NCBI RefSeq assembly: GCF_000151315.2
Contig: NW_011887307.1
Coordinates: forward strand, 624,876 to 688,875
DNA: 64,000 nucleotides
Origin: Capsaspora owczarzaki ATCC 30864
Lineage: Eukaryota; Opisthokonta; Filasterea
Reading direction: 5' to 3'
In this document: positions 23,537 to 31,287 of the stretch, one piece after another
How positions within the stretch are numbered: position 1 is the first letter of the stretch
How the letters are laid out: every line of letters starts with the position of its first letter
Made by a program: the position numbers and the translations under genes
Notes under the pieces: model-generated
The model's database searches: none
Told to the model about the DNA's origin: nothing
What the model saw: only the letters and a program-made list of their open reading frames with translations

Positions 23537-23612
23537 AACACCTAGAGCAGCTCACGAAGCAAAAGGTCCGCAACGTACTCTCAAAACACCAAACACCCAG
23601 AGCAGCTCACGG
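23537..23612. repeat. 49-nt-spaced local duplication reaching into the kinase gene's stop codon
   Basis: A unit containing AGAGCAGCTCACG occurs at about 23545 and again at about 23595. The second copy includes the stop codon of the LRR-kinase gene, so the 3' end of that gene has been partly duplicated downstream. Confidence 0.7.
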
Positions 23613-26600
23613 AACAAAGGTGTGGTTGAATGCGCCCTCCTGGAATGAGGTCAGACGAACTCGACAGATCGGGCAGTTGTCGTGGCGCTGGATCATCACT
23701 TGAGCACACGCAACACAGACGCATGCGTGGCAGCACGGCATCAATTTGGCATTGGTGGGCGCGTCGCAACAGATCAAGCACTCACGCTCGATAGCGTCTT
23801 CCTCGTTTGCTCCGGCTTCTTCGCCCGACAATCGTCTCAAGATCTCGCCGAACGACGGTCGATCAACTCGTGCTTGCTCAAGGCAATCAACCGCAAGATC
23901 TCCCGCCATGACTTGTGCCGCCTCCTTGTCGTGAATGCTCCAATCAATTGCCTTGTCCAGCACCGCATCAATTTTACGGCTCCTTTTCAGCTCGCGTCGA
24001 ACGTTGGCGAGCAGGTCGATGCTGGGCTGCTGTCCAGTCACAAGCTCAAGCAGAATCATGCCGTACGAGTACACGTCCGTTTTGATCGAGACCTTGCCTT
24101 CCTGGTGGTACTGCGGGCAGATGTACTGCAGTGTGCCTTGAACAGTCTGCGTACGAATGTAACTGTGTTCATCGACTTGAGCTGGCACAGAGCGCGTCAG
24201 CCCAAAGTCGGCGACTTTGGCGTGAAAGTCAGCATCCAGCAACACGTTGCTCGTCTTGAGATCCAGGTGGAACAGTGGCTGCCGCGGAATGGCAGTCTGG
24301 ACAAAGTGCATGGCGGTTGCAATATCGGTCGCAATGTTTCGGCGTTGAGCCCAGTTCAATGCAGGCGTGCCACCCTTGCGATCCAGACGCTCGCGAACAG
24401 ATCCGTTTGCCATCAGCTCGTAGACCAAGCAGCGCTCGTTGCCTTCCTGAGCATAGCACATGATGGTGACAATGTTCGGGTGACGGAAACGAGAGAGAGA
24501 TTCCAGCTCTGCTTCGAACTGAGCGACGCCTTGGGTTGAATTGGCCGCCAAGCGTTTGACCGCAACTTGCCGACCGCTCCAGACAGCAGAGTAGACGCTG
24601 CCAAATCCACCGCCACCGATGCGCTTGGACTCTGAAAACTGCATTGTGGCTTGCGACAGAACTTGCAACGACACTCGCGGAATGGTGGCGTTGATGGGTG
24701 CAGCGGACGAGGGCTGAGCTGGTTCCACTTGACGCGATTGGAGTTGTTGACCAACTTGCCGAGCCATCGAATCGGACGCCACGAGAGGTGCGCTGACAGC
24801 ATTGGATGGAGGAGCGGGCGTGGGTGCGACGGGGCCTGGACTCGGGGGAATGATGCTCTGATTTTCCGCCCTGGAAAATGAAGCAAGTCAGAAAGACAAT
24901 GAAGTCTCACAAACACCCACCCAAACAACAAGTGCAACTCACGAGAACTCGCAACCTGCGGGAACGCTTTGGGATAGACGCTGAACAGCACTTGCAGAGA
25001 TCTGGTTGCGGGACAGACTATTGCAAGCACGGACGCGTACAAGGTAAGATTTCAACAGATGCACAATGTTGGTTCGCTCAAGCCGCTGTATCGGACGGGC
25101 TCAATCAGACCCAACCGCCCAAGAGACGCTCGACAGCACACAAACATACTGGAGGATGGCCAGCAGCGGCTTGTTCCGAAGCGACGATTCAATCGCCAGT
25201 GCTCCCGTGTCACCAATCTGATTGACGTGCATCCTAGATCAGACAAACACCAGTAGCAAGTCAGGTTTGGGCAAAGTTGGAGATGCCACTCAAAGGCCAA
25301 ACTTGCGACCACCGTACTTGAAGTGAGTCAACGCAGTCGACGTCTGCAGGCCTTCAGCGATGGCACGCGCTCCGGCATCACCAATCCTGTTACTGCCCAT
25401 ACTATATCAGATCGATCATGTGAGAGCCGTGTGACCAGTAGCCCCTGTGACAGCTACAAAACGTACAGAAGTACAGAAAGGTTTGCTTTGTTCCGAAGCG
25501 CAGATCCGATCGCCTGGGCTCCCACGTCACCAATCTGATTGGCGTGCATCCTAACTCAGAAGGTCATCAGTATCACGCCATTATTGACCAGACCGGGACA
25601 TACAACTAAGTTCAAACATGCGAAAACAATACCAAAGCTGTATCAACGAAGTCGTCGTCTGCAGGCCTTCGGCGATGGCACAAGCTCCAGCATCGCCAAT
25701 CTTGTTGCTGCCCAAGCTGTATCAAAACGGGTACATGAGAGACGCGCGCCGAAGCGACACTTTAGACCACCAGAACGTACTGGACACTAGACAGGTCTGC
25801 TTTGTTCCGAAGCGCAGATCCGATCGCCTGTGCACCTGCGTTGCCGATTTGATTGTTGTTCATCCTAGGCCAGATAGGCATCAGTACCAAGCCATTCGTG
25901 AGCAAAGGCGAAGATGCGACAGACGCTCCAACTTGCAACTACGATACCGGAAATCGGTCAGCGCAGTCGACCCCTGCAGGCCTTCAGCTATAGCACAAGC
26001 TCCAGTGTCACCAATCTTGTTCTCGCCCAAGCTGCATCAAATTGCACAAGTAAGAGCCGTGCGACCAATAGCCCCCTTGACAGCACCAAGACATACTCGA
26101 GGAGGCACAGCTTTGCCTTGTTCCGAAGAGCTGATCCGATGGCCTGTGCTCCCGCGTCGCCGATTTGATTGGCGTACATCCTAAATCAGTCGAACATCAA
26201 TAGCAAGCCATTCTTGAGCAAAACTGGAAATGCGATCAAAGGTCAAACGTGCGACTACCATACCCGAGCTCAGTCAACGCTTTCGATGTCTTCAGTCCCT
26301 CAGCGATGGCACGAGCTCCAGCGTCGCCAATCTTGTTCTCGTGCAAGCTGCATCAAGTTGCTCATGTTAGAACCGTGTAACCGACAGCACCTATGATAGA
26401 ACCAGAACATACCAGAGATTCGTCAGGTTTGCCTTGTTCCGAAGCGCAGTTCCGATCGCCTTTGCTCCCGCGTCGCCAATTTGATTCGAACTCATTCTAA
26501 GTCAGACAAAAATCAGCAGCAGATCATTCCCACGGTCAAGTCAACCGCACAACTACCATACACGAGCTCAGTCAGCGCTTTCGACGTCTGTAGGCCTTCG

Positions 26601-29600
26601 GCGATGGCACGAGCGCCAGCATCACCGATCTTGTTCCTGCTCAAACTGTATCAAATCGATCAAATTAGAGCCGCCCGCATAAGCGACACTTATGGCAGCG
26701 CCACAACGTACTCGAGAGTAGACAGGTTGGCCTTGTTTCGAAGCGCAGATCCGATCGCTTGTGCTCCCGCGTCACCGATTTGATTGTTGTTCATCCTATG
26801 TCAGACCAACATCAAAAGTAAGCCATTATTGAGCAAAGTTGCAGAGGCGATAGAATGTCAAACGCGCAATACCGGAACTTCGTCAGTGCAGTCAATGCCT
26901 GCAGGCCTTCAGCGATGGCACGCGCTCCGACATCGCCAATCTTGTTGTAGCTCAAACTATGTCAGATCGCTCAAGTCAGAGTCACGCGACCAATAGCCCT
27001 TGTGACATCACCATGACGTACTCAAGGAAGGACAGGTTGACCAAGTTCGAAAGAGCAGATCCGATCGCTTGTGCACCCACGTTGCCGATTTGATTGTTGT
27101 TCATCCTACGCCAAACAAACATCAGCAGCAGCCCATTCTTGAGTAAAGTTGGTGATGCAACCAAAGATCAAACGCAAGGCTGCAATACTCGAGCGAAGCT
27201 AGTGCGGTCGACACCGCCACGCCTTCAGCGATGGCACGAGCTCCGAAATCACCAATCTTGTTCCAGTTCAAGCTGTAGGAAAATCAATCAAGTGAGAGCC
27301 GCATGGCAATATCTCCAAATGACGCCGCCCGAACGTACCAGAGCCTGAACAGCTGTGCCTTCTTGTTCCGAAGCGCAACTGCGATCGACTGTGCTCCCAT
27401 GTCTGTAATTTGATTTTTTTCGAGCCTGTTTCAGACAAAAATTAGCAGCAAGCCATGCTTGCGCGAAGTTGGAGGTGCAACAGAGTGTCAAAGGCGCGAC
27501 TACAGTACTTGAGCTCAGTCAACGCAGGTAATGTCAGCAGGCCGTCTGCGATGGCATGTGCTCCGGCATCACCGATCATGTTACTGCTCATGCTGCATCA
27601 AATTCGGACAAGTTAGTGTCGCGCGCCGAAGAGACACTGTACACCAGAACATACTCAAGCGTTGACAGGTTCTCCTTGTTCCGGAGCGCATATCCGATCG
27701 GCTGTGCACCCGCGTCGCCGATTTGATTCGAACTCATGCTAAGTCAGACAAAAATCAGCAGCAGGTCATTGAGCGAAGCTAGAGATGCGACCACAGGTCA
27801 GGTTGATCACGCAACTACAACACCTCAAGTCAGTCAGCGCAGTTGACGCATGCAGGCCTTCAGCGATAGCCCGAGCTCCGGTATCACCAATGTGGTTCAG
27901 TTCCAAGCTGCAACAAGTTGTTCAAGTGAGATCTGTGGGACCAATAGCCCCTGCGACATCAGCAGAACGTACTGGAGCCGCAATAGTTTCGACTTGTTTC
28001 GAAGCGCAGGACCGATCGCCTGGGCTCCCGCGTCACCGATTTGATTGCGGTGCATCCTAAATCAATCAAGCATCAGTAGCAAGCCAGAGATGAGCTAAGC
28101 TGGACTTGTAACCAAACGCTCGAGCACAATACCTGAGTTCAGTTAGCGCTGTCGATCCCTGTACGCCTTCAGCGATAGCACGAGCTCCGGCATCGCCAAT
28201 CTTGTTCTCGTCCAAGCTGTATTAATTCGTGCATATGTGAGAGCCGCTTGACCAACAGCCCCCAATGAGAGCACCAGAACGTACTAGAGTGTGGACAGGT
28301 TTGCCTTGTTCCGGAGCGCAGATCCGATCGCCTGAGCTCCCGCGTCGCCAATTTGATTCTTATCCATCCTAAGTCACGCAAACAATTCAGAAGCAGGTCG
28401 CTCTTTAGCGGAGGTACAGATGTGACCAAAGGTCAAACGCGATTTCGATACCAGAGCGTTGTCAGCAAAGTCGATGTAGTCTGCAGGCCTTCACCGATGG
28501 CACGAGCGCCGGCATCACCAATCATGTTCTCGCTCAAGCTGTATCCAATCAGTCAAGTGAGAGCCAAACACCAAATAGACACGGTACACCACCAGAACGT
28601 ACGAGAGGATTGACAGGTTTGCCTTGTTGCGAAGGGCAGATCCGATCGCCTGTGCTCCCGCGTCGCTGATTTGATTATTTTCCATCCTAAGTCACGCAAA
28701 CACCGGAACCAAGCCATTCTTGAGCAAAGACGGAGATGCGACAGAACGTCAAATGTGCGACTGCGGTACCTGAGCTCGGTCAGCGCACTCGACGTTTGTA
28801 GGCCTGCAGCGATAGCACTAGCTCCCACAGCACCAATCTTGTTCTCTTCCAAGCTGTATCAAATCGGTCAATTAGAGAAGCGTGACCAATAAACCCTGCG
28901 ACACCACCAGCACGTACTAGAGAACAGACAGTTTCGCCTTGTTTCGAAGTGCAGAGCCGATCGCCTGTGCACCAGCGTCGCCGATTTTGTTGGCCTGCAT
29001 CCTGTGTCAGACGAGCATCAGATGCAACCCATTCTTGAGCGAAAGCTGGTGATGAGACCAAAAAAAAAATAGTCAAAACGCAAGTCTGCAATACTCGAAG
29101 GAAGCTAGTGCGGTCGCCGCCTGCAGCCCTTCGGCGATGGCACGAGCTCCGACATCACCAATGTCGTTCATGCCGAGGCTGTTGTTGCCAAGTCAGTCAA
29201 GTGAGAGCCGTGTGACCAATGGGCCCCCACGCGATACCCCAGAACGTACCAGAGCATCGTCAGCCTGGTCTTGTTCCGAAGTGCAAGTCCGATCGCCCGT
29301 GCTCCCGTGTCACCAATGTGATTGATAATCATGCTATTTGACACAATTTAGGTGAGATATCGTCTTGAGCGCCTCGCTTCCATTGCTATAGTCGCTTTCT
29401 GACTTGAGATGTCGCAAGTTGCCATTCTCCATGAGACCCCTGGCAATCACAACAGCCTCTTCATCGGTAATCGAAGCGCAGTCGAGTCTGGATGATGCCG
29501 CCAAACACCAAACGCAGGTCAGCGTGCAGCGCCAACGACCACGCCTGCCAGGTCTTTGAACGATACTTACTCGACATCAGAGGAAGACACTGCGGCAGAG

Positions 29601-29632
29601 TAACGCTGCCACAGTACATGCGTATCAGACAT
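23607..29632 (-). CDS. LRR (NLR-type) - IRAK-like non-RD kinase - RING finger protein
   Basis: One gene of about 31 exons and about 1250 residues. Exon 1 (29632-29571) begins MSDTHVLWQRYSAA. About 28 exons of 84 nt follow (such as 29487-29404, 29333-29250, 26180-26097, 26031-25948), each one ribonuclease-inhibitor-type LRR. Then come a 75-nt last LRR exon (25017-24943) and a large 3' exon (24870-23607). The latter encodes a Pro-rich linker and a kinase with GGGGFGSVYSAVW, VAVKRL, gatekeeper Tyr in CLVYELMANGSV, HLDLKTSNVLLD and ADFGLTRS, resembling IRAK/Pelle and plant receptor-like kinases. The Arg of HRD is Leu, so it is non-RD. A C3HC4 RING of IAP type ends the protein (ECLICCDAP, PCCHACVCVACA, CPICRVRL). 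No signal peptide or membrane segment is seen, so it is probably cytosolic. Immune-type sensing is inferred. Confidence 0.85.
25146..29335 (-). repeat. Tandem array of two-exon LRR units, about 316-bp period
   Basis: Fourteen type-A exons (consensus NQIGDAGAQAIGSALRNKA) alternate with thirteen type-B exons (NKIGDAGARAIAEGLQ). Example: A 26180-26097, intron 65 nt, B 26031-25948, intron 83 nt, next A starting at 25864. Every checked intron is phase 2 and sits at the same point of the LRR. Introns have diverged much more than exons. Confidence 0.9.
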
Positions 29633-31287
29633 CTAGGGAGGAACAATGGATGAACAGATCAGTCAGCCTGAAGTGTGCAGCCCTCCCCTCCCGCCGTCAG
29701 TCCAGGACACAGCAACGTCCCACTCTCGATGTGACTTGTTCCGCCTCCCTCGTCAGCCTTGTCATGCGACTCTGCGACGGGAAGGGCTTTCGGTGCAAAA
29801 GCATTCATTGTGCGTCTCTTTGCGCACCCCCCCCCCCAAACACAACACAACACGCACACCCCACTCGCGACCATCACCGTCGTCTACACAAGCTAGATCG
29901 AGCTAGATCGAGCTGGATCAAGCTGCTCTAGCGGGCACAGTTGGTGCCTGAGAGTGAGCCTTGGGCGATCGCGCGTTTGTTTCGGCTTCCATGTGCGTTT
30001 GGTGCGCACCGACGTGGAAGGCTCATGTGCAGCGTGTGTGCGATGTGTGTGTGCATCAAATCGAAGACGCGACAAACAACAGCAACAGCAGCAACAGCCA
30101 GCAACAAAAAAAGGGGTAGTCAAAACCTGACCTTGAAACAAAAAAAAAAAAAAAAAAAAAGCAATGAAACAGAGAGTGAGCCGTTATGACACGATACCCC
30201 CCCAAAAAAAAGGATGACACATCGTCAAAGGCAAAGCGAATGGCTCGTCTTTCGAGCTGGTCGCGGGATTGTGGCGCGGATTAACGAGAGAGAGAGAGAG
30301 CGAGCGCTGAAAACCAAGCCGCTTTGTGATGGATTCAACGTCACATCTGAGAGCTACCCTGGTCATTCTGTTTGACTAATTGTGTGAGGGCTGTTAAGGC
30401 GCCTGTATCGCTGTTCTCCAAGGACGAAGAACGAAACGCGAGGTAGAGAGAGAGAGAGAGAGAGAGAGCCAAGTTGGATGGCCTCGATCAGGCAGCATCC
30501 CATGGGCCATATGACTCTTTTGACTACCAACAAGTGAGAAGCATTCCCACCGGGGAGCAGAGAAGGGCTGGAGGTGGTTGAGCCTGTGCTAGGGTTGCGT
30601 TAGGGTTGCGTTCAGTTAGGGTTAGGGTTAGGTTTTTTTTGTATTAGGGTTAGGTTAGGGTTTAGTCTTTGTTTCCGTAACCCTAAAACCCTAAAACCCT
30701 AGTTTCATATTGTTTTTGATTGTGCTGCTGCCGTTTGGTTGGACTTGCCGCAACTGCAACGCGGCTGAGCTTGTCTTAAGGCTGACACGTGTCGCAAGGA
30801 TTGAGCCCAGCCACATTGCGCTGCTTGCGACAGAACAGAGCGCGCCGGCGTTTGCAGGCGAACAGGATTTGCAACAAAAAAGAAAAAAAATTTGCGCCTT
30901 TTTTTTCCCCGTCCAGCGATCAGCTTCGCCGACAGTTGGATGCGGTGCGCTGGCGGTATTTCCGACAGTGACACTGTCGCCGCTTCAGCAGTTCTGACAG
31001 CGTGCCGCGCGGGGACGAACGGTCAACCAACCAAAGCACAAAGCAAGCTAAACGCAGCGAAACAAAAGTCGAAAAAGCCATTTCAAAAATAGTGAAGTTT
31101 TCCCGCCTTTTTTTTTTTTTTTTTTTGAGGTCTCAGTTTTTTGATGAACGTTGTCAAAATGTGTAGTTGTGAAAAAGTTTTTATTGGACGTGCGAATTTT
31201 GATTGCTGCTATTTGATGCTTCTGAAAACTTGGAGCTAACGTTTGATGTTCGGATTTTTCTTTCCTATTTTTTATTTTCTTCTCACC
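29633..31287. promoter_or_regulatory. Divergent intergenic region between the LRR-kinase and TRF-like genes
   Basis: About 1.65 kb separating two divergent starts. It holds an A-run at 30138-30160 (T-run in the sense of the LRR-kinase gene), (GA)n stretches at 30288-30301 and 30446-30468, the telomeric-like block at 30589-30702 and a T-run at 31110-31126 in the sense of the TRF gene. No further gene was seen. Confidence 0.55.
30589..30702. repeat. Interstitial telomere-like repeats, TTAGGG then inverted CCCTAA
   Basis: The plus strand shows degenerate TAGGGTTGCG units, then TTAGGG repeats at 30600-30632 and 30644-30663. These are followed within about 15 nt by inverted CCCTAAAA repeats at 30678-30702. 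The two halves could pair as a hairpin. Confidence 0.85.

What the first reader, a model, noticed from the sequence alone, without database searches (positions are those of the whole stretch)
23607..29632. LRR array fused to an IRAK-like non-RD kinase and a RING finger in one cytosolic protein
Seen: about 28 ribonuclease-inhibitor-type LRRs, a TKL/IRAK-like kinase with HLD instead of HRD, and a C-terminal C3HC4 RING of IAP type, with no signal or membrane segment. Known: NLRs use such LRRs for sensing; non-RD kinases of the IRAK/RLK clade are enriched in innate immunity; RING fingers mark E3 ligases. Inference: a one-piece sensor-kinase-ubiquitin ligase, an immune-type design in a unicellular relative of animals.
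Basis: partly seen in the sequence, partly recalled or inferred. Interest (0 to 1): 0.85.

Follow-up and report, generated by a model that had tools for sequence, protein, structure and literature searches.

The report
Shuffled leucine-rich sensors on kinase-ubiquitin-ligase chassis
A single-celled relative of animals carries dozens of kinase genes of this type in which a fast-changing, exon-by-exon built sensor is joined to a constant kinase, often with a ubiquitin ligase on the same protein, a layout that looks like a home-made repertoire of internal receptors.

Summary
On the minus strand, 31 exons (29632-23607) make one 1252-residue frame in Capsaspora owczarzaki: 28 ribonuclease-inhibitor-type LRR exons (25 of exactly 84 nt, all phase 2), a non-RD (HLD) kinase of RLK/Pelle/IRAK type and a C3HC4 RING with an IAP-like T-F-V-x tail. 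It is not a lone gene: the genome holds at least 80 strong kinase matches and 30 RING-linked loci. Other front ends ride on the same chassis: LRR-Roc-COR or SH2 in Capsaspora, ankyrin or armadillo repeats in unnamed metagenome contigs. Between this gene and its two nearest paralogs the kinase-RING end is 96% and 92% identical and under purifying selection, while the LRR arrays differ in number (27, 15, 21 full repeats found) and order, except for the last five. Concave LRR positions are nearly unconstrained, core positions strongly conserved. Best reading: cytosolic sensors whose clustering switches on a kinase and a dimeric E3. Immune use is plausible, not shown; selection above neutrality is not established, and a public 'variant' that looked like exon skipping is not a clean splice. 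Eight library searches with Capsaspora as a term listed no paper on this family. New variant of a known kind.

The parts
29571..29632 (-). exon 1, start codon ATG at 29632
   Evidence: similar N-cap in annotated paralogs
29404..29487 (-). exon 2, N-terminal cap and first partial LRR
24943..29333 (-). array of 28 RI-type LRR exons (25 x 84 nt, 2 x 87, 1 x 75), alternating A and B types, all introns phase 2
24943..25864 (-). last five 84-nt LRR exons plus the 75-nt cap: the block that is matched in register in the two closest paralogs
23607..24870 (-). last exon: Pro/Ser-rich linker, kinase, RING, stop at 23609-23607
23835..24635 (-). protein kinase domain (residues 911-1177)
   Evidence: Pfam 6.4e-42; AF2 plus Foldseek; coordinates
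24555..24557 (-). VAVK lysine, residue 937
24261..24269 (-). HLD catalytic-loop motif (non-RD), residues 1033-1035
24201..24209 (-). DFG motif, residues 1053-1055
23664..23780 (-). C3HC4 RING, first to last Zn-ligand, residues 1196-1234
23661..23663 (-). Arg 1235 directly after the last Zn ligand, invariant in the eight RINGs aligned; place of the RING 'linchpin' (role recalled)
23610..23621 (-). C-terminal T-F-V-P tail; Phe 1250 is third from the end, as Phe616 of cIAP1 (618 residues, recalled)

Best explanation
This is a cytosolic receptor of a large Capsaspora family. A long RI-type LRR solenoid, rebuilt from gene to gene by gain, loss and exchange of one-repeat exons, holds the binding surface; the C-terminal kinase and RING are a constant output module. 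Shown: the gene structure, the domains, the family, intact catalytic and zinc-binding residues, the conserved tail, the contrast between changing array and constant output. Inferred: a ligand on the concave LRR face (microbial or self) brings two or more chains together; the HLD kinase, which like other non-RD kinases should not depend on activation-loop phosphorylation (recalled), phosphorylates partners or its own chain; the paired RINGs, each tail phenylalanine reaching the ubiquitin on the partner's E2, ubiquitylate the same target or the receptor. Coupling both steps in one chain would replace the adaptor-IRAK-TRAF relay that animals assemble from separate proteins (relay recalled).
For: One frame, 31 exons. 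Purifying selection on kinase-RING: dN/dS 0.16-0.30 against each of the 19 paralogous loci compared, dS only 0.088 to the nearest. HLD in 66 of 75 distinct related proteins. The eight RING zinc ligands, the Arg after them and T-F-V are invariant in the 8 RINGs that I aligned, two of them from unnamed organisms; of 24 proteins matching a loose RING pattern 18 end in T-F-V-x, and T-[FY]-V is the tail in the 20 loci (window gene included). In cIAP1 the equivalent Phe acts in trans across the RING dimer (PMC6349121, passages). LRR concave positions pN/pS 0.78 (A) and 1.16 (B) against 0.08 and 0.19 in the core. Array turnover: last five repeats 81-100% identical and in register, upstream repeats out of order; DNA identity to paralog X falls 97, 91, 81, 67, 51% in 400-bp steps away from the kinase. 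Front-end swapping.
Against: No expression, ligand, kinase or ligase data. Array turnover is a normal outcome of tandem repeats and needs no selection for diversity. For A-type repeats concave pN/pS is below 1 (bootstrap 0.65-0.94) and for B-type it does not exclude 1 (0.97-1.40); synonymous sites are close to saturation (pS 0.69 and 0.51). Many LRR kinases of the clade lack the RING: in the tree 23 Capsaspora rows do, 18 of them one subclade and 5 scattered among RING-bearing rows, so the ligase is not needed for whatever those do. Six of 24 RING-pattern proteins do not end in T-F-V-x: P0166 has two further residues, P0021 a longer extension, P0012, P0022, P0278 and P0284 no such tail. The best solved RING match is RNF141, not an IAP. 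RING dimerisation is inferred from the tail alone.
Confidence: 0.5

Rival explanations
1. Same protein type, but for self-signalling: recognition of cells or internal cues in aggregation, encystment or feeding rather than defence.
For: Capsaspora has stage-specific gene regulation; differentially skipped exons and filopodial-stage retained introns there are enriched in kinase genes (PMC3870316, passages). NF-kB levels change with life stage (PMC8677719, passages). An SH2 front end on two members suggests wiring into ordinary phosphotyrosine signalling.
Against: Developmental receptors are usually few and conserved (general knowledge); here there are dozens of copies with rebuilt sensors. No stage data for these genes were reachable.
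Confidence: 0.3
2. The LRR arrays change neutrally by unequal crossing-over and serve only as a scaffold or spacer; the kinase-RING does a housekeeping job.
For: Tandem 316-bp units should recombine readily; variation without pN/pS clearly above 1; array lengths from about 10 to 28 repeats in the loci read.
Against: Core LRR positions are under strong constraint (pN/pS 0.08 and 0.19), while the concave face is the least constrained class of positions, which is the pattern of a binding surface; 25 of 28 LRR exons keep exactly 84 nt.
Confidence: 0.15
3. The kinase is the only output; the RING is a self-destruct tag that removes the activated receptor.
For: A large RING-less subclade keeps the kinase, with LRRs in the members scanned, as if the ligase were an accessory; the RING lies on the same chain as its obvious substrate.
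Against: RING-bearing rows of the HLD clade outside the main Capsaspora group (P0021, P0022, P0131) suggest that the fusion is old and was lost later.
Confidence: 0.25
4. Two neighbouring genes (LRR protein, kinase-RING protein) read as one.
For: No cDNA of this locus seen.
Against: In-frame splice junction and the same junction in annotated paralogs P0002 and P0125.
Confidence: 0.04

Closest known systems
Animal NLRs with RI-type LRRs (for example NLRP3)
   Same: RI-type LRRs; LRR exons of constant length with the border always at one place in the beta-sheet, described as a precondition for alternative splicing (PMC6642158, abstract and passages); cytosolic (recalled)
   Different: human NLRP3 LRR exons are 171 bp for two repeats, here 84 nt for one; no NACHT; output is a kinase plus RING instead of a death-fold domain (latter recalled)
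IRAK/Pelle and plant RLK/RLCK kinases
   Same: nearest solved kinases: BRI1, SYMRK, BAK1, FERONIA, IRAK1 and IRAK4 by sequence, BRI1 and IRAK4 by fold; non-RD motif common in immune members (recalled)
   Different: no death domain, no membrane segment; own clade with 99/93 support
Plant U-box kinases such as PUB33 (P0283, P0295, P0308, P0311)
   Same: kinase of the same broad group with an E3 domain in one chain, after the kinase in the one I read, P0283
   Different: U-box instead of RING; no LRR domain listed for them; USP-like front end (recalled); separate branch
Dimeric IAP-type RING E3s (cIAP1, XIAP, BIRC7)
   Same: C3HC4 ligand pattern, C-terminal Phe two residues from the end (lengths recalled); matched weakly by sequence
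   Different: no BIR, CARD or UBA domains found here
Roco/LRRK proteins
   Same: LRR plus TKL kinase; sister proteins in this family are LRR-Roc-COR-kinase-RING (P0010, P0012)
   Different: the window gene has no Roc or COR
Choanoflagellate Kinase TLRs and Kinase TIRs
   Same: LRR and/or TIR joined directly to a kinase near the base of animals (PMC6040629, passages)
   Different: those carry TIR and, for the TLR type, a membrane segment; no RING mentioned in the passages seen
Brown-algal LRR-ROCO and NB-ARC-TPR genes with shuffled repeat exons
   Same: candidate pathogen receptors with dynamic exon shuffling (title in the reference list of PMC4053784; details recalled, paper not held)
   Different: other output modules; unrelated lineage

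Membership tests
RI-type LRR proteins | 28/29-residue repeats, horseshoe of strand and helix | tested here: met
   LRR_6 3.4e-102; model of paralog P0002 (mean pLDDT 76, LRR part mostly above 80, kinase part poorer), best matches ribonuclease inhibitors
NLR | NACHT or NB-ARC domain | tested here: not met
   no such family in Pfam scans of the two halves of the protein
NLR | one-length, in-frame LRR exons | tested here: met
   25 of 28 exons 84 nt, all phase 2
IRAK/Pelle | kinase domain of RLK/Pelle type | tested here: met
   BRI1, IRAK1, IRAK4 among the best
IRAK/Pelle | N-terminal death domain | tested here: not met
   none in Pfam scans
IRAK/Pelle | groups with animal IRAKs in a tree | tested here: inconclusive
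   separate clade; only two IRAK rows, long branches, midpoint root
non-RD kinases | residue before the catalytic Asp is not Arg | tested here: met
   HLD
RING E3 ligases | eight zinc ligands C3HC4 | tested here: met
   zf-C3HC4_3 39 bits over cut-off 27; ligands invariant in eight aligned relatives
RING E3 ligases | ubiquitin transfer with an E2 | not testable with these tools
   needs biochemistry
IAP proteins | BIR domain | tested here: not met
   none in Pfam scans
IAP proteins | C-terminal aromatic tail acting across a RING dimer | tested here: inconclusive
   tail present; dimer not tested
Roco | Roc-COR tandem | tested here: not met
   absent in this protein, present in sisters
Plant U-box kinases | U-box | tested here: not met
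   RING instead

The most novel reading that the evidence does not exclude
Capsaspora runs an NLR-like repertoire without NACHT or TIR expansion: dozens of cytosolic sensors whose LRR arrays are continually rebuilt from interchangeable one-repeat exons (by DNA recombination, perhaps also by splicing) in front of a constant output, a kinase and, in about thirty loci, a dimer-gated ubiquitin ligase. The chassis is older than this lineage and accepts LRR, LRR-Roc-COR, SH2, ankyrin or armadillo front ends.
Probability: 0.35. Interest if true: 0.9.

Novelty: new variant of a known kind. Interest (0 to 1): 0.7.

Why it matters
Capsaspora has NF-kB but, by the literature seen, no homologs of TLRs, IL-1R, TNFRs or IKK (PMC8677719, passages), though some intracellular TLR-pathway components are said to be present (PMC9621439, passages). 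What signals upstream of NF-kB there is open. A large family of one-chain LRR-kinase receptors, part of them with an E3, offers candidates in a unicellular holozoan that is cultured in the laboratory. If the arrays vary between isolates, it would show a diversified receptor repertoire before animals, with exon-modular RI-type LRRs like those of NLRs. The kinase-RING chassis with swappable front ends is also a natural example of how sensing, phosphorylation and ubiquitylation can be put in one polypeptide.

Tried and rejected
Exon skipping as shown by a public isoform: P0125 and its 'variant' P0124 are identical except for 112 residues, the length of four repeats, which at first looked like skipping of four exons. 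Mapping to the DNA puts the junction inside a stretch shared by two repeats, at any of 31 points, with no GT-AG pair (one GC-AG). That fits template switching, transcript-assembly collapse or a recombined allele better than splicing, so I do not count it as evidence.

Positive selection: a first pass over positions 2 and 3 alone gave dN/dS 1.6 and 2.2. With the concave positions defined by the LxxLxLxxN consensus, the split codon included and a bootstrap, the values fell to pN/pS 0.78 and 1.16. I report the second. Repeat types A and B were assigned by a rough rule that breaks the alternation at a few places, and the 87-nt and 81-nt exons were left out.

Viral origin or spread: one scan of viral contigs with alignment A2 found no relative. 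Telomeric position: exact TTAGGG triplets match at 12 places in the genome, seven of them in one stretch of C10, none on the window's contig; dropped. One fetched region, L042, lay on the wrong side of its kinase and gave no LRR exons. L045, a neighbouring paralog, was fetched and not analysed. Literature: ten searches of the held library, eight of them with Capsaspora as a term (the other two are); none listed a paper on this family by title or abstract start. The Capsaspora genome paper is not held, nor is the brown-algal exon-shuffling paper, so prior mention there cannot be excluded.

Rows dropped or chosen: the tree used rows that I picked; P0011 and P0284 fell out because the matched kinase piece was too short; P0166 sits on a very long branch and its place is unsure. 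In the census 102 rows became 93 loci; 80 reach 190 bits, three of which are the kinases of one gene. Only 100 of 311 first-look candidates were scored, so counts are lower bounds. Two of the 30 RING-linked loci (C10:1097659, C10:1322751) matched over the RING end only. One search compared 20 loci, not all 30.

Full report
What is there. The window lies in the genome of Capsaspora owczarzaki: the best protein matches carry that name, and the length of the window's contig equals that given for two of them, 798668. On the minus strand a start codon at 29632 opens a 31-exon reading frame of 1252 residues ending at 23607. Exons 3 to 30 are RI-type LRR exons: 25 of 84 nt, two of 87, one of 75. Every intron of the model splits a codon after its second base, so by the LxxLxLxxN consensus the border always falls in the beta-strand of the repeat. 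Repeats alternate between two types (72% identity within type, 48% between) and the DNA repeats with a 316-bp period: the array grew by copying a two-exon unit. The last exon holds a Pro/Ser-rich linker, a kinase (Pfam 6.4e-42) and a C3HC4 RING (7.1e-10). There is no membrane segment or signal-like N terminus.

One gene, not two. No cDNA was available. But the annotated paralog P0002 aligns at 83% over residues 359-1252 of the model, across the LRR-kinase junction, and P0125, another annotated LRR-kinase-RING protein, maps to eight 84-nt exons with GT/AG borders in its own locus. No protein identical to the window gene is among the best 120 listed in two searches covering 231-2191 aa, so it may be missing or mis-modelled in public sets.

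Kinase and RING. Nearest solved kinases are BRI1, SYMRK, BAK1, FERONIA, IRAK1 and IRAK4 by sequence, BRI1 and IRAK4 by fold (mean pLDDT 80.7). The catalytic loop reads HLD, and so it does in 66 of 75 distinct relatives examined (68 from Capsaspora, 7 unnamed). The other nine: HFD in two, HRD in two, HLN in one, and four where the pattern found nothing, two of which read HFD on a looser look. Lysine and DFG are intact in the window protein. All eight RING ligands, the following Arg and a T-F-V tail are invariant in the eight sequences I aligned, six from Capsaspora and two from unnamed sources. Over a wider set 18 of 24 end in T-F-V-x. In cIAP1 Phe616 of one protomer packs on the donor ubiquitin held by the other, and F616H is defective (PMC6349121, passages). 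Phe1250 here has the same spacing to the end (cIAP1 length recalled). This is a specific, testable sign of a dimeric RING; weak sequence matches to cIAP1, cIAP2, XIAP and BIRC7 agree with it, but the best RING match is RNF141.

A family. The kinase-RING exon gives 102 match rows in the genome, 93 loci after merging, 80 of them with 190 bits or more, and 30 have a RING in the right place; these are 30 of the 63 C3HC4_3 matches of the genome. By contrast NB-ARC, NACHT and TIR give 2, 4 and 4 matches; those searches read exon by exon and are a rough yardstick. Seven Roc matches lie just upstream of kinases of this set. Architectures seen: LRR-kinase-RING, LRR-Roc-COR-kinase-RING, SH2-kinase-RING, LRR plus three kinases, LRR-kinase without RING. 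Two unnamed metagenome proteins have ankyrin (P0131, 49% identity) and armadillo (P0022, 43%) repeats in front of the same kinase-RING. In a tree of 59 kinases that I selected, the Capsaspora rows and five of the six unnamed-source rows (P0022, P0131, P0157, P0270, P0278; not P0166) form one clade (99/93). Of 23 RING-less Capsaspora rows 18 form a subclade (100/100) and 5 are scattered among RING-bearing ones, while RING-bearing P0021, P0022 and P0131 fall outside the main Capsaspora group. So the fusion is probably old and the RING was lost more than once, or is missing from some gene models. Root and long branches make this tentative.

Variable front, constant back. The two nearest paralogs, X (96%) and Y (92% over kinase-RING), differ from the window gene by dS 0.088 and 0.205 with dN/dS 0.19. 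Yet I found 15 and 21 full repeats in their arrays against 27. The last five match one to one (X: 89, 81, 99, 93, 100%; Y: 93, 82, 94, 92, 96%), whereas repeats further up have their best matches at 73-88%, out of order (one 81-nt exon of X and the 87-nt exons of the window gene could not be scored). DNA identity at equal distance from the kinase exon falls from 97 to 51% over 2 kb towards the 5' end for X, and from 95 to about 65% for Y; loss of register adds to the fall. Sensor arrays thus turn over far faster than the output module.

Selection. Over 71 repeats from four loci, core positions have pN/pS 0.08 (A) and 0.19 (B), concave positions 0.78 (0.65-0.94) and 1.16 (0.97-1.40), other positions 0.42 and 0.56. 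The fold is maintained and the binding face is the freest part. This fits diversification, but positive selection is not shown.

Splicing. Human RI-type LRR exons are modular and NLRP3 uses that for alternative splicing (PMC6642158, abstract and passages). In Capsaspora, differential exon skipping is enriched in kinase genes and two thirds of such exons overlap domains (PMC3870316, passages); whether these genes are among them is in a supplement I could not open. The one isoform pair I tested is not a clean splice. Splice diversity remains open.

Verdict. The discovery-level content is the family: a shuffled LRR sensor set on a constant kinase chassis, with a ligase in about thirty loci, in a unicellular holozoan.

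Noticed in passing
G000:C2:2630238-2633369 (protein P0001, 1270 aa): LRRs followed by three tandem kinases of the same clade; the third has HLN instead of HLD, so it may be a pseudokinase.
   Followed up: partly
G000:C16:621532-622395 (L045): Another kinase of the family lies about 2.5 kb outside the left edge of the window, 26 kb from this gene; fetched but not analysed.
   Followed up: no
P0126 and P0129: SH2 domain in front of the same kinase-RING, an unusual pairing of phosphotyrosine reader, TKL kinase and E3.
   Followed up: partly
P0010, P0012; genomic loci C4:1132393, C4:1432642, C8:1148641, C19:101154, C9:849336: P0010 and P0012 are LRR-Roc-COR-kinase-RING, that is Roco proteins ending in a RING. 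The five loci have a Roc match upstream of a RING-linked kinase of this set.
   Followed up: partly
G000:C19:101013-101330 (P0127): Two RINGs in tandem after one kinase.
   Followed up: no
window 30590-30662: Short degenerate TTAGGG-like tract about 1 kb upstream of the start codon.
   Followed up: partly
P0124 against P0125: Public 'variant' lacks exactly four repeats' length with a junction inside shared sequence: artefact, recombined allele or odd transcript.
   Followed up: yes
P0152, P0235, P0237, P0262, P0242, P0258: Members with HFD (first four) or HRD (last two) instead of HLD.
   Followed up: no
P0015: Roc-COR-bearing member (domains as precomputed) with GFG instead of DFG, a possible pseudokinase.
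   Followed up: no
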